Part shown: positions 5,209-18,644 of the stretch, piece after piece
Layout of the letters: every line of letters begins with the position of its first letter
How positions within the stretch are numbered: position 1 is the stretch's first letter
Assembly: GCA_000171875.1 (NCBI GenBank)
Contig: ABHI01000001.1
Coordinates: 445,001 to 509,000, forward strand
Direction of reading: 5' to 3'
Length of the DNA stretch: 64,000 nt
DNA from: Flavobacteriales bacterium ALC-1
GTDB taxonomy: Bacteria > Bacteroidota > Bacteroidia > Flavobacteriales > Flavobacteriaceae
The notes under the pieces: generated by a model
What the model was told of the DNA's origin: nothing
The model's database searches: none
What the model saw: only the letters and a program-made list of their open reading frames with translations
Program-made: the position numbers and the translations under genes

Positions 5209-8200
5209 TTAAAATTTCAATTTAACACCTAAAGTAAATGTTGTAAGTGGTGCATAAAAACCTCTACCACTTCCACCATTTTGGCTAGTTGATGGATTAT
5301 AACCTGTTCTTTTAGATTTTATAAATAAGTTATCTCCAGACACATATAAGTTTACTAAATCTAAACCTGTCTTATCTAAGAATTTAGACGATAAGGTGTA
5401 ACCTAATAAAACATTGTTTAAGGCTAAATAATCTCTCTTAATAAGGAATCTTGTTGATCCAGAACTTACATTAGGGATAACTCTATCTGCAATTCTTGGT
5501 ACAGATGTAATATCACCTGGTTGTCTCCAACGATCTCTAATATCGACGTGTCTGTTAGTACCAGAAATACCACTATTATTATCGTGAATTAACTCACGGT
5601 ACTGACCATCAAAGGCGTAACCACCAATTGAATAAGTAAACTGCGTAGATAAGTTCCAATTTTTGTAACGTGCAGATAAACGGAAAGCTCCTGCTACATC
5701 TGGAATACCAGATTTCTCATTGAATTTTTCAGTTGCGCTAGCATACGTTTTTGTAACTGTTTTTTCTACGTTAGCATCAGGATTAGCATTTAAATAATCA
5801 GTCATACTCTGAATAGCAGTATCACCAGCATCAAAAATACCATCACCATTAACATCATCATAATACTGATTCCACATTGGGAAACCATCTGCAGGATCTA
5901 CACCAGCATACTCACGAATGTAGAAATCATATATAGAACGTCCTTTTGCATATGCAAAATTACCTTGTCTATCTAATATTTTAGGTAAACCTGTAGAAGG
6001 CTCAATAGGCATTGTTGTAATTTCGTTATCATACATAGAACCATTAACAGATAAGTCTAAAGTAAAATCATCTTTTCTGATAATATGACCTGTTAAATCA
6101 AATTCTAAACCAAAGTTTCTTAAGACACCATCATTAACTGTAATAACAGCTACACCTGTTGAAGGTGGATTTCTACGTGGAAAAATCAGATTTTCTGTAT
6201 CCTTAACAAAATAATCAATAGAACCATCTAACCAATTACCTAAACCAAATTCAACACCTACTTGGTATTGCTTAGCTGTTTCCCATGTTAATTCTGGGTT
6301 CTCAAAAGTGTTAGGTGCAATAGCAATAGAACCACCAAGGTTAGATGCATTAAATGTATCAATACCTGTGTAGAAACCTACTCCATTTTCATCACCTGTT
6401 ACACCATAAGATCCTTTAAGTTTTAAGTATGTAAACAAGTTACTATCTGATAAGAAGTCTTCATTAGATAAAATCCAAGCGGCACCTACAGAACCAAATG
6501 TTCCATATTTATCATTAGCAAATCTTGAAGAACCATCACGACGGATAGATCCTGTTAAGAAATATTTTTTATCAAAATCATAATTAACTTGACCAAAATA
6601 AGATTCTAATGTTCTACCTTGACGGAAACCTGTTGATGGATTGGCATCAATGATGTAGTTATTTAATTCATAAATACCTGGCACGACAGCTTTACTCTTA
6701 CTTCCTGTAATAAATGATTGCTCAAACTCATTACTCTCATGTGCTGCTAAAATCTCTAAAGAATGATTTCCAAAACTAGTTCTGTAACGTAACAACTGTA
6801 AAAAGTTCATCGTTAAAGTTTCTGTATTTCTCTGGAAAAAATTACCTCCATTAGGAGCTCCACCACCATAGAATTGGTTAGAAGCACTTTTAAAAATTTG
6901 GTTAGAGTACTGTGCACCAAACGTTGTTTCAAAAGTTAAGCCTTTTGCAACATTGATAGTCGCATTAAAACTACCATTAACTTCATGTCTATCCGTACCA
7001 ACAAAATCATATAATGCTGATGCTATTGGGTTAAGACCATCAGAAGCGGGTCTAGCTCTTGGAGCAAAACCATTATTAATCGCTGAAATAGAACCATAAT
7101 CATATTGGAAACCTCCAAAGATTGGATCTGCAACCAATTCCTGATTGTCATCTCTTAAGAAAACACCATAGATAGGTGGCATCTTATCAGCAAATTCAAA
7201 AAGGTTCTCTGCACCATTCGTCTGACCATTACTTCTAGTCTCAGAATACGTATAACCTAAGTTTGCACCAATCTTAAACCATGGTCTAACTTTAGCATTA
7301 ACATTTAATCTCGTTGTATATCTTCTAAATCCAGAATTAATAATATACCCTGAATCATCTAAGTAACCACCAGAGATAAAATACTTTACATCTTCATTAC
7401 CACCACCCATTCTAAGGTTAACCTCAGTTCTGTAGGCTGGATTAAATGATTCTTCTTGGAAATTCTTTGGTGTAAACTTACGTGTAACACCTGGTCTTAC
7501 TTGTGCTGTTGCTGGATCAATTAATTCAGCTCCATTGGCAACATTCCACATATTGTACACTGGGTTGATAAGCGTTGTAAATAAAGTATTATTTACAGTC
7601 CCTACTGGATCAGCATCACCAGTTAATATTTGTCTGTTCACATTTGCCTCCCATACATATCCAATAAATTCTTCTGGATCAGTAATAACATCATATCTAT
7701 CTATTAACTGTGTGTTAATACCAGTTCTTACATCAACTTCGATATAAGATTCTGTAGCAGAACCACCTTTAGTTGTGATTAAAATAACACCATTTGCACC
7801 ACGCGAACCATAAATAGCCGTTGCAGTCGCATCCTTAAGGATCGTTGTCGATTTAATATCTGAAGGGTTGATAGCATTTAAACTACCAGAGTAAGGAACA
7901 CCATCTACAACATATAAAGGTGCTCTGTTACCATTAACAGAACCGAAACCTCTAATTCTAATTGTAGAAGTAGAACCTGGCTGACCAGATGTGTTAATTA
8001 CTGTTACACCAGCAGCTTCACCTGCAAGTGACTGAGAAACGTTTGAGAAGTTTTTCGTTTCAATATTCTCAGATTTTACTACCGTTGCTGTACCAGCATA
8101 GGCTTTCTTAGTTGTGGTACCATAACCAACAACTACTACTTCATCAAGTGTGCTGTCATCTTCTAGAGCGACATCGTAAGTGTTACTTGCTCCTACAGTC

Positions 8201-8479: not shown

Positions 8480-8511
8480 CAAACATCTTAATTAAATATT
8501 AAATAAACAAG
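8480..8511 (-). promoter_or_regulatory. Possible promoter of the susC operon
   Basis: On the minus strand CTTG (8511-8508) is followed after 20 bases by GATGTTTG (8487-8480). This is one mismatch from the Bacteroidetes -7 box TAnnTTTG at the right spacing. It lies about 30 bases before the susC start codon. Weak, because both boxes are imperfect. Confidence 0.35.
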
Positions 8512-8654
8512 TGTTTTTGCTAAAAAAATGTTAATGCTTTTGCGAATTTATCAACAGGGTGCACAATTCATTTTTCCTAATGTTTTAAACATTTAACTCA
8601 ATACTTTAGTCAATACTTAGATGTAAAAACTGTAAAAGGGTTGCGTTAAAATTT

Positions 8655-8662
8655 TAACTTTG
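8655..8662 (+). promoter_or_regulatory. -7 promoter element of rnhB
   Basis: TAACTTTG matches the Bacteroidetes -7 consensus TAnnTTTG exactly. It ends only 16 bases before the likely rnhB start, so the leader would be very short. No good -33 TTTG is found at 19-21 bases upstream. Confidence 0.45.
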
Positions 8663-8678
8663 CTGAAATTTTAACATT

Positions 8679-9281
8679 TTGACTCTTAAAATTCAATTTT
8701 CTTCTTTCGATTTAGAATGTGGTACAGATGAGGCAGGCAGAGGCTGTCTAGCTGGACCAGTAACTGCTGCAGCTGTGATATTACCTCAATCATTTAATAA
8801 CAAAAAATTAAATGATTCTAAACAACTTTCAGAAAAAAACAGGAATCTTCTAAAACCTATTATTGAAACTGAAGCACTTTCTTTTGCCGTTCATCATATT
8901 TTTGAATCAGAGATTGACACCATTAATATATTGAACGCCTCAATTAAAGCCATGCATCATTCTATTGATAAACTTAAAATTACACCAAACTATATTATAG
9001 TTGACGGAAATAAATTTAAACCCTATAGAGACATTCAGCACAAAACTATAATTAAAGGAGATAGTAAATACCTGAGTATTGCAGCAGCTTCAATTTTGGC
9101 AAAAACATATAGAGATGAATACATGAAAAAAATTCATGAAGAATTTCCTATGTACAATTGGAAACAAAATAAAGGTTACCCAACAAAAGAACACAGAGCT
9201 GCAATTAAAGAATTCGGTATTACAAAATACCATAGAAAATCATTTAGATTATTACCAGAGCAATACCGTTTAGATTTATAA
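8679..9281 (+). CDS. rnhB: Ribonuclease HII
   Basis: This 200-residue enzyme removes RNA, including single ribonucleotides, from RNA-DNA duplexes. The active-site block [15 protein letters not shown] is present (Asp17, Glu18), followed by IIVDGNKF (Asp109) and [18 protein letters not shown], all diagnostic of RNase HII. Length is normal. There is no in-frame ATG near the conserved N-terminus; the frame opens with TTG at 8679, which gives the expected distance to the first motif, so TTG is taken as the start. A -7-like TAACTTTG lies just upstream. The next gene, a lipoprotein, starts 21 bases after the stop and may be cotranscribed. Confidence 0.95.
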
Positions 9282-9302
9282 CTTTGTAATAAATATATTT
9301 TA

Positions 9303-11675
9303 ATGAAGAAATTCGGATTTTTAATAGTGCTATTATTTATTCTATTAGCCTGTCAAAAAGATTATAACAAAACTAAACTAGCTTATCAATTTGCACCTAG
9401 TAATTCATCTGCTATCATTAAAGTAAATGAGCTTAATGATTTCATTAACAGTATTGAAAATCATAACATTCTTTCTGGTGTATATAATAAGGAGTTAAAA
9501 AATGCTTCAGAAGTTTTAAGACACTTTAATACAACAAAGCAAGTTTATGTCAGTTTTACTAATACTACAGAAAATAATTCAGACTATATTATTCTTACAG
9601 AAAACGACTCTACTCTATTTGTTATAGATTCTATCCCAAACCACATTTCTAAAACTTTAATAGATTTTAAAATTGAAAACACACAAATTGATACTACGAC
9701 TGTCTATCATAAAATAATAGGAAATGTTTTTGCCGGTTCTAATAACCTAGAACTCTTAAAATCTCTAGATGCGAAAAAAGAAAACACAGAACTTAGTAAA
9801 CTAATTGAAACTACAGACGAAAAATCTGTGGCTTCTATCGTTTTTAAACCCAATACAAATAACTATTCAAAATTATTATTCGATACTATTGATTTACAAG
9901 ACGACAATTCTAATTACACTGTTTTAGACTTAGGTTATACCGATAATAATCTTCAGTATAATGGAATACTTACTTCTGAAGACTCTATCTCTAATAAGTT
10001 AGACAGCTTTAAGCATACTATTCCTCAAAAAAATCATACTCCGGAGTTAGCCCCAAACAATACGACTTCATTATTAAGTATAACATATGATGACTTTTTA
10101 GTATTCAATAAAAATCTTAGCCTATTAAATAAACAGGAGATTGATAGCACTCAAACTCTTTTAAATTTTACTAATGAAATTGCATTAATTGATAACGCAG
10201 TACTATTATATTCATTAGACCCAAATCTTGCTATAGAATATATCGAAGATAAATCTAATGCCGAAACATTTAGAGGTGTTGAAATTTATGAGTATGGCAA
10301 TCCGGATTTTTTTAATTCGCGGTTAAAACCATTTATAACTTACAGTAATGCTGAATACTTTTCAGTTTATGAAAATTTTATTGTGTTTTCAAACTCTATT
10401 GAGAGTATCAAAACTATACTGACAAATGCATTAAACAATAACACATTAGTAAATTCTAATGCATTTATTAGTATTAGTAAAAATCTTAGTGATGAGGCAT
10501 CTTTATTTATTTTTAAAAATTCTGAAGGCTTATCAAAAATTTTAGACAGTAACACAAAAGATTACAATGCTAATGCTGTACAATATATTTATGAAGATAA
10601 TTATGCTCATATAAATGGTATTATTCAAAAATTCAAAAAAAGAGCTCCACTAAACACAATTACTGAGGCTTTTGTTACAAAACTTGATGCCGAAACCATA
10701 ATAGCACCACAAACACTTAAGAATCATGTTACAAATGCTAATGATATTGCTGTACAAGATGTAGATAACATTCTCTATCTTATTTCAAGTTCTGGTAATG
10801 TGCTTTGGAAAAAACAATTGCAGGGGAAAATCCTCGGTAAAATTGAGCAAATAGACATGTACAAAAATGGTAGGTTGCAACTTGCTTTTGTTACAAAAAA
10901 TCATATTTATGTTTTAGATCGCAATGGAAATAACGTTTCACCATTTCCAAAAAAATTTAGCGATGCTATTACGCAGCCACTTGCTGTCTTCGATTACGAC
11001 AAAAGAAAAGACTATAGGCTTTTAGTTACTCAAGGCAAAAACCTATTAATGTATAATTCCAAAGGGGAATCAATAACCGGTTTTAATTATAAAAATAATG
11101 GCTCAACTATTACTACTCAACCAAAACATTTTAGAATAGGCAGCAAAGATTATATTGCTTTTGCTGCTGGTGAGACACTTAAGATATTAAACCGCCAAGG
11201 GAACATTCGTGTAAATGTAAAAGACAAGATTCGCTTTTCAGAAAACGAACTCTATTTATATCAAAATAAATTTACTACAACTAATACGCTTGGACAACTT
11301 GTACAAATCAATACCAAAGGTAAATTAAGCACTAAAAATTTAGTCTTACCCAACAATCATCATATTGAAACTACAAGTAAAACCTTAGTTACTATGACTG
11401 AAAATAAGTTAAACATAAAATCTAGAACTATTGATTTAGATTATGGAGACTATACAGCACCAAAAATCTTTTATTTAAATGATAAAATCTATGTGACCAC
11501 AACAGACTTACAATCTAAAAAAGTTTATCTTTTTGATAGTCAAGCTAAAGCTATTCCTAATTTTCCAGTATTTGGAACCTCAGCAGCAGAATTACAAAAA
11601 TTAGATAAAGATCATGGTCTAGAACTTATAACTCAAAGTGATGATAAAAATATCATTGTTTACAAACTTCACTAA
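9303..11675 (+). CDS. Large conserved-type lipoprotein of unknown function
   Basis: The 790-residue protein has a lipoprotein signal with Cys17 (FILLACQKD). The N-terminal ~450 residues are a mix of alpha and beta with several FxxY/ITYDDF segments and no recognised motif. From about residue 470 there is a run of beta-rich segments (ILYLISSSGNVLWKKQL, HIYVLDRNGN, LLMYNSKGES, TLKILNRQGN, VYLFDSQAKAIPNFPVFG) that look like blades of a PQQ/WD-type beta-propeller. The propeller assignment is inference from the repeated VxxxDxxG pattern. The gene follows rnhB closely. I do not recognise a named family. Confidence 0.7.
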   Translation: MKKFGFLIVLLFILLACQKDYNKTKLAYQFAPSNSSAIIKVNELNDFINSIENHNILSGVYNKELKNASEVLRHFNTTKQVYVSFTNTTENNSDYIILTENDSTLFVIDSIPNHISKTLIDFKIENTQIDTTTVYHKIIGNVFAGSNNLELLKSLDAKKENTELSKLIETTDEKSVASIVFKPNTNNYSKLLFDTIDLQDDNSNYTVLDLGYTDNNLQYNGILTSEDSISNKLDSFKHTIPQKNHTPELAPNNTTSLLSITYDDFLVFNKNLSLLNKQEIDSTQTLLNFTNEIALIDNAVLLYSLDPNLAIEYIEDKSNAETFRGVEIYEYGNPDFFNSRLKPFITYSNAEYFSVYENFIVFSNSIESIKTILTNALNNNTLVNSNAFISISKNLSDEASLFIFKNSEGLSKILDSNTKDYNANAVQYIYEDNYAHINGIIQKFKKRAPLNTITEAFVTKLDAETIIAPQTLKNHVTNANDIAVQDVDNILYLISSSGNVLWKKQLQGKILGKIEQIDMYKNGRLQLAFVTKNHIYVLDRNGNNVSPFPKKFSDAITQPLAVFDYDKRKDYRLLVTQGKNLLMYNSKGESITGFNYKNNGSTITTQPKHFRIGSKDYIAFAAGETLKILNRQGNIRVNVKDKIRFSENELYLYQNKFTTTNTLGQLVQINTKGKLSTKNLVLPNNHHIETTSKTLVTMTENKLNIKSRTIDLDYGDYTAPKIFYLNDKIYVTTTDLQSKKVYLFDSQAKAIPNFPVFGTSAAELQKLDKDHGLELITQSDDKNIIVYKLH

Positions 11676-11756
11676 ACCTTAAACCTATTCTACATTTCAT
11701 TTTTTAGTTTCAATAGTTATCCTTAATTTTAGACCGCTATTAATCAATTACTTAAA

Positions 11757-13450: not shown

Positions 13451-14500
13451 ATGATAAAACGACAAAAAGCCTCAATAAAAAGCTGCATTATCCACAAAGT
13501 TGGAAACAAATTTAATGACACAAAAAACGCATTTTCTGATGCGTCAGTACATTTTGATGAAGCGACTTATAACTTAATGTTGCCTTATCTTTTAAAGCCT
13601 TTTGTTAGTGTTGCTGAAAATTATCGTTTTCATCATCATAGTGATGTTGGGCTTAATGAAATTAATACCTACAGTGAACAAATTTTTAAAGATGAAGGCG
13701 ATTTTGTAGACGTTTCTAAACATATTGTCACACATCTATTTGAACAAAGTAATTCCGCACAAATAAAAACAGGTGATGTGCTCATTTGTCATTTTGAGAA
13801 CGTACAATACGAAGATTATTTTACAGATGCTATTGGCATCTATAAAATTGAAAATAAAACAGAATTTTTTCAGACTTATCTAGAATCTGGAAATTATGAC
13901 ATTTTAGTACAAAAAGGTATCCAAGCTAAGAAGGTAGATAAAGGGTGTTTAATACTTAATACCTCAGACATGGAAGGTAAAATTGTATTTAGTGTAGATA
14001 ACAATACCTACGACACACAATACTGGATTAAAAGCTTTTTAAACATTACATATCCAGACGATAGTAATCAGCATACCAAGAATTGTATTGAGCTATGTAG
14101 GGAGTTTTCTAAAGACGTTTTACAACCTAATTTTGGTGGACAAGCACAGAGCAATTTCTTAGCTAATACAGTAGATTTTTTTAAAGAAAATGAAATTATA
14201 AATATTGAAACATTTAAAGAAGAAGTCTTTGACGAAGAAGATCAAATACAACTCTTTGAAGACTACAAAAAAAGTTATGAATCTGAACACAAAGTGCTCA
14301 TTAGAAATCAATTTGATGTTTCTGAGCGCGTCTTAAAAAAGCAAAAACAAAAGATTAAAACCGAAATAAAACTAGACACCAACATACAAATTAAACTAGA
14401 TGTTGACGCACCAGATGCCTCTGCAGAGTATCTAGAGCGTGGTTATGACGATGAGAAAAAAATGCATTTTTATAAGGTGTTTTTTAATGCTGAAGCTTAG
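13451..14500 (+). CDS. Nucleoid-associated protein, NA37/NdpA family
   Basis: The 349-residue protein matches the 37-kDa nucleoid-associated family (NA37, E. coli YejK): the N-terminal block IIHKVGNKFN, then YLLKPFVSVAENYRF, then GDVLICHFENVQY and a conserved middle segment (DYFTDAIGIYKIENK). It is probably a cytoplasmic DNA-binding protein; the exact role of the family is poorly known. There is no signal peptide. The last ~34 codons, from GAT at 14399 to the stop, are repeated with about 97% identity at 17304-17404, on the other side of the next gene (see pseudogene entry). Confidence 0.88.
   Translation: MIKRQKASIKSCIIHKVGNKFNDTKNAFSDASVHFDEATYNLMLPYLLKPFVSVAENYRFHHHSDVGLNEINTYSEQIFKDEGDFVDVSKHIVTHLFEQSNSAQIKTGDVLICHFENVQYEDYFTDAIGIYKIENKTEFFQTYLESGNYDILVQKGIQAKKVDKGCLILNTSDMEGKIVFSVDNNTYDTQYWIKSFLNITYPDDSNQHTKNCIELCREFSKDVLQPNFGGQAQSNFLANTVDFFKENEIINIETFKEEVFDEEDQIQLFEDYKKSYESEHKVLIRNQFDVSERVLKKQKQKIKTEIKLDTNIQIKLDVDAPDASAEYLERGYDDEKKMHFYKVFFNAEA
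14399..14500 (+). repeat. Direct repeat copy A: 3' end of the NA37 gene
   Basis: These 102 bases, the functional 3' end of the NA37 gene, align with 17304-17404. I count three substitutions and one deleted T in the second copy. Weaker similarity continues past the stop codon into a TTTG/TTAG-N19-TAnCTTCG promoter-like arrangement in both copies. Confidence 0.9.
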
Positions 14501-14531
14501 TTAGATTTTGTCAGAATTTTTACTAACTTCG
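14501..14531 (+). promoter_or_regulatory. Possible promoter of the type B T9SS gene
   Basis: TTAG (14501-14504), 19 bases, then TAACTTCG (14524-14531). It has the same spacing and the same position relative to the TAG stop as the better matching TTTG-N19-TATCTTCG in the second repeat copy (17405-17435). It lies 64 bases before the ATG at 14596. Confidence 0.4.
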
Positions 14532-14595
14532 ATTAGCGTTGAATAATAAACATTAAAACTCAATCTCATTACTAAACTTGGAAAGAAGCTTCAAA

Positions 14596-17292
14596 ATGAA
14601 TAGAAGACAACATCTTACATTTTTTATCATAATATCACTTAGCTGTATTATCAAGTCCAGTGCGCAAATCCTAATAGGAAATAGTTCCTGTAATGAAATT
14701 GAAGAAGCCTCAATATATGGTTGTAGTTGGGGAGGAATAAATTGGGCTAAGACTTATGATTTATCTAGTTTTGGTATAAACAATAATGAGGAACTAGTAT
14801 TAACAAGTGGTGAAATTGGTCTAGATTGGGTTGGGACTTGGGATGTAAATATTAGATTTAATATCTATGAAATTGATGCCAACTTCCCTAATTCATTTTC
14901 AGAAACAGACTTAATTGGCAGTAGTCAAGTTGTTCCTGTTCCTTATTATGGACAAAACAACCCTCAAATCATAACCGTTAATTTTGATACACCCATCCTA
15001 ATTGGAAGTAATATCTCTTTAATTTTAGTTGAAGTAGAACAGCTTTCAAGCTTAAGTAGTGGTGCAGTTGCCTTTGCTGGAAATATTCCCGCTAATGGTA
15101 GTTTATCCTGGTTTAGAAGCGAGAATTCTGGCTGCCCACCTTCTACATATACAAGTACAGTAGATCTCGGTTATCCTGACGCTAATTTTCATATTACAGT
15201 ATCTGGAGCAACAAATAATATAAACGATCCTTTTACATTAAATTTTTCTAATGATTGCACAAGTACTTTTCGAGAATTTCAACTAAACAACACAAGTAAC
15301 ATAAACTCTATTCAATGGGATTTTGGTGACCCAGCTTCTGGTGTAAATAACAACTCAACTTTTACCTCGCCTACACATGATTTTTCCTCACCTGGTCAAT
15401 ATTCGATTACAGCAACAATTACACAAACAAACGGAACAACATATATAATAAACGAGACTATTTCTGTAGCAGAACCTCCTATTGCCCATCCGATTAATGA
15501 TATTCATGAGTGTGAAAACACTATTGGTTCTGGTATTTCTTCTAATTTTGATACATCTAGTATAGAATCACAAGTATTAAATGGACAAACAGGAGTCATA
15601 GTCTCCTATTATGACCAAAATGGCAATGTGCTACCTAACCCACTACCAAACCCTTTTACCAACACACAACCCAATTCTCAAATAATAATAGCTAGAGTAA
15701 GTAACAGTAGTGATTTGTGTTGTTTTACTGAAACTTCGTTTAATTTAATTGCAGACCCATTACCAAACATAGCTCAAATCGATGATATGCTATCATGTGA
15801 TATTGATGAAGATGGTTTTACAATATTTGATTTAACTAATGTACCAATTGAATTAGTCAACGGTCAATCTAATTTCACCGTTGAGCTATTTGACAGTAAT
15901 GATATTATAATTTCAACCGCTAACTATATTGATTTTGTAAACTTAACAGCAAATCAAGATTATATAAAAGCCATAGTAACTAACTCGTTTACTAATTGCT
16001 CATCTGAAACCAATCTTAACTTGGTAGTAAGTGATAATCCTGAAGCAAATCAATTACAAATTATATATGGCTGTGATGATAATAATGATGGTGTTTCTGA
16101 ATATTTTGAGACCTCTAATATAGAGAGTCAAGTTTTAAATGGGCAAACAGGTATGACCGTTAGTTATTTTGACCAAAGTGGCAACCAATTATCTAGTCCA
16201 TTACCTAATCCTTTTACGAATTCTAATCTTTTTAATGAATTAATAACTGTAAGAGTGACTGATAATAATTCAACCTGTTTTACTGAAACTACACTTCAAT
16301 TGCAAACTGTAACGCAGCCTAGCATAAATCAACCCGACAATTTATATGCATGTAACCAAAGCAATGGATATGCAGAATTTGACACGTCTAATATTGAAAC
16401 ACAGATTATTGGTAATCAAACAGGTTTAACAATACAATTTTATGATTCTGACAATAATGCACTCCCAAGTCCTTTACCTGTATTATTTCAAAATACAGAA
16501 CCCTTTTCTCAAACTATAAATGTTAGGGTCGAAGATGCCTCAAATCCTATATGTTATTCAGAAACATCATTTGATTTAATAGTGAATGATTTACCTGAAA
16601 TCAATTTAGAAGAAGAATACTTCATTTGTAACTTAGAGCCTTCTATTTCATTAAATATAAATTCTGATTTTAATACATATAATTGGCTCTTTGAAGATGG
16701 AACTTTAATTTCTAATACATACAGTGCAGAAATAATAGAAGAAGGAAATTACTTTTTAATGGTTACCAAAATTGAAAATGGTATAACTTGTGAAAACTCA
16801 TTTGAGTTTAACCTAATTCGCTCTGTACTACCAGAAATACAACAAGTAAATTATGGAGAATTAGGAAATAATTATATTGAGATAATCGCTGCAGGTGATG
16901 GAGATTTTGAATACTCAATTGATGGTCTCAACTATCAAGAAAGCAATTATTTTCAAAATATTCAAGGAGGCACTTACGTCGTATTTGTAAGGGATAAAGA
17001 TGGATGTGGACAAGACTCAGAAGAGGTAACAATAATTGATTACCCTAAATTCTTTACACCAAATAATGATGGATATAATGATTTTTGGCAAATAAAAGGA
17101 ATAAGTAATTTTCCCGATTCGAAAATATTGATTTTTAACAGGTATGGAAAATTATTAACTCAACTATCATACAATGATTTAGGCTGGAATGGATTTTATA
17201 ATGGGAAAAAAATGATGTCGAGTGATTATTGGTTTAGAGCAAACCTTGGAAATGGACTAATCTTTTCTGGGCATTTTGCATTGAAAAGATAA
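14596..17292 (+). CDS. Secreted multi-domain protein with type B T9SS (CHU_C) sorting domain
   Basis: The frame is open from TTG 14578, but ATG 14596 directly precedes a signal peptide (FFIIISLSCIIKSSAQ), so I take it as the start (898 residues). After an N-terminal beta-sandwich there is a PKD-like module (IQWDFGDPASG ... HDFSSPGQYSITATI). Three or four Ig-like repeats follow, sharing the phrases TSNIESQVLNGQTG, VSYxDQxGN and PLPNPFTN. The last ~85 residues (FFTPNNDGYNDFW ... FNRYGKLL ... SGHFALKR) are the gliding-motility-associated CHU_C domain, which marks T9SS type B cargo. It is probably a surface adhesin or motility-associated protein. It is flanked by two copies of the NA37 gene 3' end, which suggests that it was inserted or duplicated here. 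Confidence 0.9.
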   Translation: MNRRQHLTFFIIISLSCIIKSSAQILIGNSSCNEIEEASIYGCSWGGINWAKTYDLSSFGINNNEELVLTSGEIGLDWVGTWDVNIRFNIYEIDANFPNSFSETDLIGSSQVVPVPYYGQNNPQIITVNFDTPILIGSNISLILVEVEQLSSLSSGAVAFAGNIPANGSLSWFRSENSGCPPSTYTSTVDLGYPDANFHITVSGATNNINDPFTLNFSNDCTSTFREFQLNNTSNINSIQWDFGDPASGVNNNSTFTSPTHDFSSPGQYSITATITQTNGTTYIINETISVAEPPIAHPINDIHECENTIGSGISSNFDTSSIESQVLNGQTGVIVSYYDQNGNVLPNPLPNPFTNTQPNSQIIIARVSNSSDLCCFTETSFNLIADPLPNIAQIDDMLSCDIDEDGFTIFDLTNVPIELVNGQSNFTVELFDSNDIIISTANYIDFVNLTANQDYIKAIVTNSFTNCSSETNLNLVVSDNPEANQLQIIYGCDDNNDGVSEYFETSNIESQVLNGQTGMTVSYFDQSGNQLSSPLPNPFTNSNLFNELITVRVTDNNSTCFTETTLQLQTVTQPSINQPDNLYACNQSNGYAEFDTSNIETQIIGNQTGLTIQFYDSDNNALPSPLPVLFQNTEPFSQTINVRVEDASNPICYSETSFDLIVNDLPEINLEEEYFICNLEPSISLNINSDFNTYNWLFEDGTLISNTYSAEIIEEGNYFLMVTKIENGITCENSFEFNLIRSVLPEIQQVNYGELGNNYIEIIAAGDGDFEYSIDGLNYQESNYFQNIQGGTYVVFVRDKDGCGQDSEEVTIIDYPKFFTPNNDGYNDFWQIKGISNFPDSKILIFNRYGKLLTQLSYNDLGWNGFYNGKKMMSSDYWFRANLGNGLIFSGHFALKR

Positions 17293-17404
17293 AAACAGAA
17301 CTCGATGTTGACGCACCAGATGCCTCTGCAGAGTATCTAGAAAGTGGTTATGACGATGAGAAAAAAATGCATTTTATAAGGTGTTTTTTAATGCTGAGGC
17401 TTAG
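17286..17404 (+). pseudogene. Remnant: duplicated 3' end of the NA37/NdpA gene
   Basis: From 17304 to 17404 the sequence repeats the last 34 codons of the NA37 gene (14399-14500). It still encodes DVDAPDASAEYLE-GYDDEKKMHF, then loses one T in the T-run (four instead of five), which shifts the frame. There is no start, so it cannot be expressed as a gene. Upstream, 17286-17300 reads in the same frame as KIKTE, which also occurs in NA37 14 residues further from the tail. The junction therefore falls almost exactly on the 3' end of the T9SS gene, whose natural LKR-stop ending overlaps it. This is direct repeat copy B. Confidence 0.88.
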
Positions 17405-17435
17405 TTTGATGTTTTGATTTTTTCAACTATCTTCG
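17405..17435 (+). promoter_or_regulatory. Promoter of the small lipoprotein gene
   Basis: TTTG (17405-17408), exactly 19 bases, then TATCTTCG (17428-17435). This fits the Bacteroidetes sigma-A pattern TTTG-N19-TAnnTTTG with one change. It starts right after the TAG of the NA37 remnant and lies ~40 bases before the ATG. Confidence 0.55.
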
Positions 17436-17475: not shown

Positions 17476-17787
17476 ATGAAAACTAGAATTTCAATATTTT
17501 TATTAATATTTTGTCTTTTTACTAATTGTAATAATGATGATGATAGCCCACAAATAGAATTTGAGTCAACTGGAAAAATCACAGGTTATGATTCAGGCGC
17601 ATGCTTCTGTTGCGGTGGTTTTTATATTGAAATTGATGGGGTAGAAGATAATAAAAGCACTTATTTTCCTGAAAATTTCGACATCGATTTGCAAAACTTA
17701 ACATTTCCAATATATCTTCAATTAAATTGGTCTAATGCACTTTGTACAAAAAGAATTATCATTGATCAAATGGAATTAATTGAATAG
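17476..17787 (+). CDS. Small lipoprotein with CFCCGG motif
   Basis: The 103-residue protein has a lipoprotein signal with Cys18 (LFTNCNNDDD). The rest is a small beta-rich domain with a cysteine cluster (GACFCCGGFYIEIDG) and one further Cys near the C-terminus (NALCTKR). Small Bacteroidetes lipoproteins with a similar CCGGxxIEID phrase are familiar, but their role is unknown to me. The cysteines could bind a metal or form disulfides. It has its own promoter-like element upstream. Confidence 0.75.
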   Translation: MKTRISIFLLIFCLFTNCNNDDDSPQIEFESTGKITGYDSGACFCCGGFYIEIDGVEDNKSTYFPENFDIDLQNLTFPIYLQLNWSNALCTKRIIIDQMELIE

Positions 17788-17906
17788 AGTCAAGTCTAAG
17801 TAACATATTCAGCCTCAAAAAGCACACTAAAACACTTCAAGAGTTTATAATTATTGTTAAATTAACACATCTATTTCTAAGCTAAAACAGATATTATCTA
17901 ATTAAA

Positions 17907-18644
17907 ATGCCTAAGCACTATAAAACAAATTATCGAGCAATTCTTGGGTTTATTTTAGCCTCAATTGTTTTAGTTCTTATTTGGCGTACTTACTATGGTT
18001 ATTACATTTTATATCCATTTACTATTCTTGGTACTTGGTTTCACGAAATGGGCCATGGTATTATGTCTATGATTGTTGGTGGTAGCTTTACACGATTAGA
18101 AATCTTTAATAATGGCTCTGGTTTAGCATTCAGTAGTTACATTGATTCTAATTTCTATTTCAATAAAAATATTTCACTTGGACTGGTCTCAGCTGCTGGG
18201 TTATTTGGCCCACCTGTAATAGGCTCTGTTTTAGTTTTAATGAGTAAAACATATAAACGCTCTAAAATAATATTATATATCCTCTCTATAGTTATGTTAA
18301 TATCTGTTGTCGTTTGGGTAAGGACTACAGTAGGTGTCGTTGTTATTTTATTTTTAGGAGCACTTTTATTTTACATCGCCATTAAAGGAAATGAAACATT
18401 ACAACAATTAGTAGTGCAATTTTTAGGTGTAATTGCATGTATAGATACCTACAAACAAATTAATTATTTGTACATAAAAAGTTTTGTAAGCAATGGTGTA
18501 GAAAAGCTATCAGACACAGGTTCTATGGCAGAACGTATAGGTTTTACTCATAGTTTTTGGGCAACTACAATTCTTATTTTAAGCTTTTCTATGCTTTTAT
18601 ATAGTTTGCTTTTAAGGAATAGAATTAGACGAACTCAGCATTAA
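17907..18644 (+). CDS. M50B-like membrane zinc peptidase
   Basis: The 245-residue protein has an early membrane segment (ILGFILASIVLVLIW) followed by WFHEMGHGIMSMIVGG, a zinc-binding HExxH (HEMGH) at about residues 46-50, typical of peptidase M50B-like proteins. Four or five further membrane segments follow. A second conserved segment, GLVSAAGLFGPPVIGS, matches the position of the family's later motif. The substrate is unknown; it may be an intramembrane or housekeeping protease. Its 3' end overlaps the 3' end of the convergent lipB by 20 bases, so no separate terminator exists between them. Confidence 0.82.
   Translation: MPKHYKTNYRAILGFILASIVLVLIWRTYYGYYILYPFTILGTWFHEMGHGIMSMIVGGSFTRLEIFNNGSGLAFSSYIDSNFYFNKNISLGLVSAAGLFGPPVIGSVLVLMSKTYKRSKIILYILSIVMLISVVVWVRTTVGVVVILFLGALLFYIAIKGNETLQQLVVQFLGVIACIDTYKQINYLYIKSFVSNGVEKLSDTGSMAERIGFTHSFWATTILILSFSMLLYSLLLRNRIRRTQH

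What the first reader, a model, noticed from the sequence alone, without database searches (positions are those of the whole stretch)
14399..17435. 3' end of the NA37 gene duplicated around a type B T9SS gene
The last 102 bases of the NA37/NdpA gene (14399-14500) reappear at 17304-17404, with three substitutions and one lost T that breaks the frame. Between them sits a complete T9SS type B gene. Both copies are followed by a promoter-like TTTG/TTAG-N19-TAnCTTCG at the same offset from the TAG. This fits an insertion or duplication that regenerated the 3' end of the target gene and its downstream promoter, so that the new gene and the old downstream gene each kept a promoter. The high identity suggests a recent event. 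The mechanism is not visible, since no integrase or IS is present.
Basis: partly seen in the sequence, partly recalled or inferred. Interest (0 to 1): 0.72.

Follow-up and report, generated by a model that had tools for sequence, protein, structure and literature searches.

The report
Gene insertion leaving a displaced gene end
In a marine bacterium a new secreted-protein gene has been inserted just behind a conserved gene, leaving that gene whole and stranding a copy of its old 3' end behind the newcomer; similar scars in relatives suggest how single genes can be added without a recognisable mobile element.

Summary
In detail: the last 102 nt of NA37 (14399-14500) recur at 17304-17404 (98 of 102 columns identical, one lost T) around a complete 898-aa type IX-secreted gene (T9). 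In 59 genomes of the genus (Winogradskyella, own included) NA37 and lipB are convergent neighbours; 13 have under 100 bp between them, 46 have 453-9392 bp of changing cargo (84 ORFs, 39 families, 82 on NA37's strand). The insertion reading holds, but the two promoters are not one duplication: the stretch after the stop is far more diverged than the tail (27/39 against 98/102, p=3.8e-5). Displaced 3' ends also lie behind NA37 in two congeners and one other genus, behind lysS, behind an A200-B147 pair and, weakly, at lipB. At A200-B147, and less firmly at NA37 in one congener, the downstream copy keeps the ancestral neighbour, so it is the old end. Best mechanism (inferred): one-ended homologous import, with the other end joined illegitimately inside the old gene end. 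No recombinase was found in the inserts scanned. The process is known in kind; the fossils are unusually legible. How far 3' ends are preferred over 5' ends is not settled.

The parts
13451..14500 (+). NA37 (nucleoid-associated protein family) gene, complete, 349 aa
   Evidence: Pfam PF04245, E=2.2e-38; 62 of 68 genus genomes match
14399..14500 (+). 3' end of NA37, upstream copy of the repeat (c1)
14501..14531 (+). promoter-like TTAG-N19-TAACTTCG in front of T9
   Evidence: read; resembles stretches behind NA37 in G012, G035 copy 2 and G023 (0 of 1000 shuffles each)
14596..17292 (+). T9: inserted gene, 898 aa, PKD and CHU_C (type B T9SS signal)
   Evidence: relatives at other places in the genus
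17304..17404 (+). displaced 3' end of NA37 (c2), frame broken
   Evidence: 98 of 102 columns identical to c1; profile hit E=1.5e-29
17405..17435 (+). promoter-like TTTG-N19-TATCTTCG in front of cf
   Evidence: read; 27 of 39 columns identical to the c1 side
17476..17787 (+). cf: 103-aa putative lipoprotein (CFCCGG), old downstream neighbour in this reading
   Evidence: no Pfam family; no match in the other 67 genus genomes, one 62% paralogue in the own genome
17803..17849 (-). probable displaced 3' end of lipB (weak)
   Evidence: profile hit E=0.00096, none in reversed sequence; alignment
17907..18644 (+). M50B peptidase-like gene, second cargo gene, shared with G470
   Evidence: Pfam PF13398
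18625..19323 (-). lipB, convergent flank of the insertion spot
   Evidence: ORF; syntenic in 59 genomes; the name lipB is my recognition of the protein, not from a family search

Best explanation
The NA37-lipB junction is an insertion spot where accessory genes come and go without a visible mobile element. DNA from a relative carrying [NA37 3' end - promoter - T9] recombined homologously with the resident NA37 near its stop codon; the far end of the incoming piece, just behind the T9 stop, was joined illegitimately to the recipient about 100 nt inside NA37's own 3' end. NA37 stayed complete, T9 arrived with its promoter, and the old tail with its promoter was pushed downstream, still in front of cf, where it decays. 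Shown: the repeat, the variable spot, similar scars at other loci, and at A200-B147 (less firmly at NA37 in G018) that the downstream copy has the ancestral neighbour. Inferred: that T9 stood behind NA37 in the donor, one-ended homology with an illegitimate far end, and the vehicle and route of entry (transformation is a guess).
For: Variable spot in 59 genomes. Displaced NA37 tails in 3 of 46 gaps (G000, G018, G035), 0 in reversed control, and in 1 of 13 loci of other genera (G426). In G018 the relic precedes a DUF1275 gene with a G462-like spacer (62/73 aligned bases, 0 of 1000 shuffles). In G468 a T9-family gene sits between two copies of A200-end+B147; the empty site in G032 has the same 238 bp (92.9%) behind B147 as the downstream copy, and 17 of 17 other genomes with B147 have one copy. 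Repeats are mosaic: nearly identical at the start, more diverged after, in G000 (98/102 then 27/39, p=3.8e-5) and G468 (93/94 then 408/441, p=0.018), as expected if a crossover inside the repeat joins native to donor DNA. Copies start 6-224 nt behind the cargo stop in five cases.
Against: No donor with NA37 directly before this T9 was found. The spacer test in G018 fails against G019, G022 and G483. The lysS case in G011 has the opposite mosaic (tail 56/64, after stop 56/56), and some relatives carry both lysS-side genes without a relic. 43 of 46 gaps show no relic. The neighbouring lipB-lysS interval varies too (351-7707 bp), so the spot is not unique. Raw counts of 5'-end copies outside ORFs are similar to those of 3'-end copies. 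ComEC and DprA matches do not show competence: most control genomes have them too.
Confidence: 0.62

Rival explanations
1. A small circle carrying a NA37 tail joined to T9 integrated by a single crossover in the tail (Campbell type).
For: Predicts the same end structure: direct repeats around the cargo with a native/donor mosaic.
Against: Needs a circle in which the T9 end was already joined to a tail start; none was seen. No direct evidence either way.
Confidence: 0.2
2. A site-specific integrase-type element uses the NA37 3' end as attachment site and regenerates it; the integrase has since been lost.
For: Conserved gene 3' end rebuilt, repeats flanking the insert, variable cargo at one spot.
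Against: Repeat lengths differ widely (62 nt to 535 nt), targets differ (NA37, lysS, A200-B147), no recombinase among the insert genes scanned with Pfam, and 0 viral contigs with an exact match to a degenerate pattern of the tail.
Confidence: 0.1
3. Tandem duplication of tail plus downstream gene, followed by divergence, loss or replacement of one downstream gene.
For: In G000 the tail copies are closest to each other (96.2%).
Against: In G468 the ancestral B147-Fic spacer behind the downstream copy is intact, so no deletion scar; in G000 the promoters are much more diverged than the tails.
Confidence: 0.06
4. Decay of a full second NA37 gene.
For: Copy 2 is a broken fragment.
Against: No second full NA37 among 62 genomes with a match; homology starts a few bases behind the T9 stop.
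Confidence: 0.02

Closest known systems
Homology-facilitated illegitimate recombination (PMC3240628: start of abstract seen in the listing; original Streptococcus and Pseudomonas papers seen only as references in PMC5361080)
   Same: Homology at one end of the incoming DNA, illegitimate joining at the other.
   Different: Experimental systems; here only genome scars, and the far end lies inside the anchor so the anchor's end is doubled.
Displacement of T6SS effector-immunity modules in Vibrio cholerae and orphan Rhs 3' ends (PMC5361080, passages read)
   Same: New module inserted by the proposed one-ended route, old 3' part displaced downstream as an orphan.
   Different: There the displaced part is polymorphic cargo that may be kept by selection; here it is a dead copy of a conserved gene's end.
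Hotspots without mobile elements driven by double recombination at flanking core genes (PMC5635113, passages read)
   Same: Variable cargo between two conserved genes, no mobile element.
   Different: Double recombination swaps contents and leaves no displaced end; it does not by itself add a gene beside the resident one.
Transformation-generated merodiploids in Streptococcus pneumoniae (PMC3784515, passages read)
   Same: Taken-up DNA with a homologous part yields duplications bordered by repeats.
   Different: Large tandem duplications between pre-existing repeats, not addition of a new gene.
Phage or island integration into a gene 3' end that is then regenerated (recalled, e.g. icd in E. 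coli; no call)
   Same: Target gene gets a new 3' end, old one at the far side.
   Different: Requires a site-specific recombinase and one fixed site; not seen here.

Membership tests
Gene addition by homology-facilitated illegitimate recombination | Homologous join on one side of the insert | tested here: inconclusive
   Mosaic repeats in G000 (p=3.8e-5) and G468 (p=0.018) fit a crossover inside the anchor; G011 does not show it; no donor found
Gene addition by homology-facilitated illegitimate recombination | Non-homologous join on the other side | tested here: met
   Copy starts abruptly 6-224 nt behind the cargo stop, inside the anchor gene's end, in five cases
Gene addition by homology-facilitated illegitimate recombination | Entry of linear DNA and dependence on RecA | not testable with these tools
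   Needs transformation experiments; ComEC and DprA matches are not diagnostic
Integrase-type integrative element at a gene 3' end | Recombinase gene in the element | tested here: not met
   None in the Pfam results for T9, cf, M50B, nine G035 insert genes, eight other cargo genes and the two lysS-side genes; not all 84 ORFs were scanned
Integrase-type integrative element at a gene 3' end | One fixed attachment core | tested here: not met
   Repeat lengths and targets differ between cases
Hotspot with recombination at flanking core genes | Diverse cargo between conserved flanks without mobile elements | tested here: met
   39 families in 46 occupied gaps of 59 genomes
Hotspot with recombination at flanking core genes | Excess homologous recombination in the flanking genes | not tested
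   Only nearest neighbours along NA37 were listed; no comparison with other core genes

The most novel reading that the evidence does not exclude
In Winogradskyella, and perhaps more widely in its family, accessory single genes (several of them type IX-secreted) are added by a one-ended, element-free process that grafts them behind conserved genes and leaves the old 3' end as a datable fossil. Such fossils would let the rate, direction and order of element-free gene gain be read from genomes.
Probability: 0.42. Interest if true: 0.65.

Novelty: new variant of a known kind. Interest (0 to 1): 0.5.

Why it matters
Many hotspots of gene gain lack a mobile element. Swapping by double recombination explains how contents spread, but not how a gene without a counterpart in the recipient is first added. 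Displaced ends of conserved genes are apparently unselected scars that tell which gene came last, from which side and roughly when, so the question becomes countable across genomes and testable by transformation in a laboratory flavobacterium.

Tried and rejected
A mobile promoter or repeat module: a pattern scan of the own genome gave 0 (the pattern was strict and misses the copies in the window too), and a 121-nt query found only the two NA37 copies below E=0.2. Foreign composition of T9: GC 0.318 and GC3 0.196 are within the range of the 12 window genes compared. NA37 tail carried by viruses: 0 exact matches to one degenerate pattern. Donor assignment by local similarity along NA37: no donor stands out among 56 congeners (G023 and G032 were left out). 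T9 as an element that always duplicates its target: of 16 T9-family loci checked, G000 and G468 C3 have target repeats within 200 bp on both sides, L177 and L180 have array repeats there, others have distant repeats or none, and some had short flanks. Integron origin of those arrays: 0 of 68 genomes have a gene over the integron-integrase cut-off, three repeats fold with z -2.16, -1.57 and +0.51, no Rfam match; left open. 5'-end control: in four sets, copies outside ORFs numbered 5, 1, 4 and 2 (the last one match seen twice) for 3' ends, and 3, 0, 5 and 1 for 5' ends. The 5'-end ones are mostly short, beside paralogous genes, or among repeated sequences, but I did not test this formally, so a preference for 3' ends is not established. 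One 3'-end match in that set (a 763-aa gene in L182, copy at 5636-5699, between B147 and T9) is unexplained. Extra tail matches in other genera seen (G061, G263, G324, G367) were not followed up; G156 and G117 were fetched and showed no tail copy in their gaps or stretches. Papers: searches listed no report of displaced ends of housekeeping genes in this genus; this open-access library is partial.

Full report
OBSERVATION. The last 102 nt of NA37 (14399-14500) and 17304-17404 align with 98 of 102 columns identical, 3 substitutions and one lost T. Homology starts a few bases behind the stop codon of the gene in between and, weaker, runs past the TAG to about 17439. That gene is complete: 898 aa with PKD and CHU_C domains. 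In 464 kb of this genome (window plus 400 kb, 368 ORFs) it is the only nearby 3'-end copy outside an ORF at E<=1e-5, setting aside one pair of adjacent paralogues; a looser search of the 400 kb adds one 31-nt match.

SETTING. NA37 is matched in 62 of 68 genus genomes. For 59, own genome included, NA37's end and lipB lie on one fetched stretch; G001 and G029 lack lipB there and G015 has only a 28-residue edge match and was not fetched. The two genes are convergent. Thirteen genomes have under 100 bp between them, five of these with overlapping ends; 46 have 453-9392 bp. I called 84 ORFs of at least 60 aa in the gaps: 39 families by blastp, 27 of them single, 82 of 84 on NA37's strand. The distance upstream of NA37, measured between match ends, is 27-342 bp in 60 loci, but the interval from lipB to lysS is also variable (351-7707 bp, 57 genomes), so this is not the only variable spot here. 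On a lysS+lipB tree the 29 arrangements need 38 changes (least possible 28, shuffled mean 43.7, as low in 0 of 200): content is partly inherited, partly turned over. Recurrent cargo includes DUF1275 (12 genomes), an inward-rectifier-type K+ channel (12) and the M50B peptidase (2).

SAME SCAR ELSEWHERE. A profile of NA37's last 180 nt finds displaced copies in 3 of 46 gaps (this genome, G018, G035) and none in reversed sequences; 1 of 13 loci that I picked from other genera has one, in front of lipB (G426). In G018 the copy stands before a DUF1275 gene that follows NA37 directly in several congeners; its spacer resembles that of G462 (62 of 73 aligned bases, 0 of 1000 mononucleotide shuffles as good), but not those of G019, G022 and G483. 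A scan of 784 genes in 975 kb around NA37 found one more long case, lysS in G011: lysS, a 375-aa protein with a T9SS sorting domain, a 62-nt lysS-tail copy followed by the same terminator-like stretch as lysS, then a 418-aa gene. G462 has lysS followed by the 418-aa gene. G002, G014, G019 and G459 have lysS followed by the 375-aa gene, but also carry the 418-aa gene further on with no relic detected. A looser pass added a 34-nt lipB-tail match in G023.

SECOND LOCUS. Looking for relatives of T9 I found in G468 a 56% relative flanked by a 535-nt repeat made of the last 30 codons of gene A200 and all of B147. In G032 the site is empty: A200, B147, spacer, Fic gene. In G468 the 238 bp behind the downstream copy match G032 at 92.9%; the stretch behind the upstream copy matches relatives only weakly (nine other genomes fetched). 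So the downstream copy is the original. 17 of 17 other genomes with B147 have one copy. The two copies are 93/94 identical in the A200 end but 408/441 in the rest (p=0.018); the B147 copies are about as far apart as each is from orthologues in other species (best 94.8% and 95.5%), so the upstream B147 looks imported.

THE WINDOW. By the same logic copy 2 and cf are the older state, and the present promoter behind NA37 plus T9 the newer. The stretches behind the two stops are 27/39 identical against 98/102 in the tails (Fisher p=3.8e-5), and the T9-side promoter scores higher against those behind NA37 in G023, G035 (copy 2) and G012 than against the cf-side one. The copy-2 tail is closest to NA37's own tail (96.2%, next 88.5%), so the crossover would lie near the stop codon, with native tail on both sides. 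A weaker scar (lipB tail, 17803-17849, E=0.00096) lies between cf and M50B; the corresponding stretch in G470, which has M50B at the same place, did not reach E=1. If real, cf is bracketed by the old ends of both neighbours, and T9 and M50B were added later on either side.

MECHANISM. The pattern (anchor gene whole, cargo, a copy of the anchor's end starting 6-224 nt behind the cargo's stop, then an older neighbour) is what one-ended homologous import with an illegitimate far end gives when that end lands inside the anchor. When it lands further down no scar remains, which may be why 43 of 46 gaps show none. A single crossover of a circle predicts the same product. Site-specific integration is disfavoured by varying repeat lengths, several targets and no recombinase in the inserts scanned (not all cargo was scanned). 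Tandem duplication is disfavoured by the intact ancestral junction in G468 and by the promoter difference here. Against the reading: G011 shows the opposite mosaic (tail 56/64, after the stop 56/56), and 5'-end copies outside ORFs are about as frequent in raw counts. ComEC and DprA family matches make DNA uptake possible, not shown; most control genomes have them too.

KNOWN. Homology-facilitated illegitimate recombination is reported for transformable bacteria and E. coli conjugation (PMC3240628, start of abstract). A model of this kind was proposed for displaced T6SS modules and orphan Rhs ends (PMC5361080, passages). Hotspots without mobile elements are attributed to double recombination at flanking core genes (PMC5635113, passages). 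Repeat-flanked variable segments and illegitimate recombination are discussed in PMC2884548 (passages). The process is known in kind; what I did not find, in the searches named, is its recognition from displaced ends of housekeeping genes.

Noticed in passing
L138/L177 (5 repeats), L139/L178 (3), L140/L180 (3), L141/L171 (2), L176 (4), L181 (2): T9-family genes in several Winogradskyella genomes lie in or next to arrays of unrelated same-strand genes separated by similar repeats of about 130-150 bp that begin CAACACCGTGTATAATTAATTGC. Cassette-array-like; no integron integrase over cut-off in 68 genomes, folding not convincing.
   Followed up: partly
L037, oriented 8489-11700 (G011): lysS 3' end and its terminator-like stretch repeated behind a 375-aa T9SS-sorted gene: another displaced gene end.
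   Followed up: partly
L062 and L063 (G023): A fragmented assembly (78% complete) with two partial NA37 copies on two contigs; strain mixture or a larger duplication.
   Followed up: no
G000:C8:114671-119563 and 119657-124513: Two neighbouring genes of about 1620 aa whose 3' ends are 99.4% identical over 165 nt while their starts are about 72% alike: looks like recent gene conversion of the 3' end.
   Followed up: no
window 17476-17787; G000:C6:91282-91608: The cf gene has one 62% paralogue in the same genome and no match in the other 67 genus genomes.
   Followed up: no
L061 (G032): NA37 is split in two reading frames near residue 293 in an otherwise ordinary locus: frameshift or sequencing error.
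   Followed up: no
L182:5636-5699: 65-nt match (74%) to the 3' end of a 763-aa gene lying upstream in the same locus, between B147 and the T9-family gene; unexplained.
   Followed up: no
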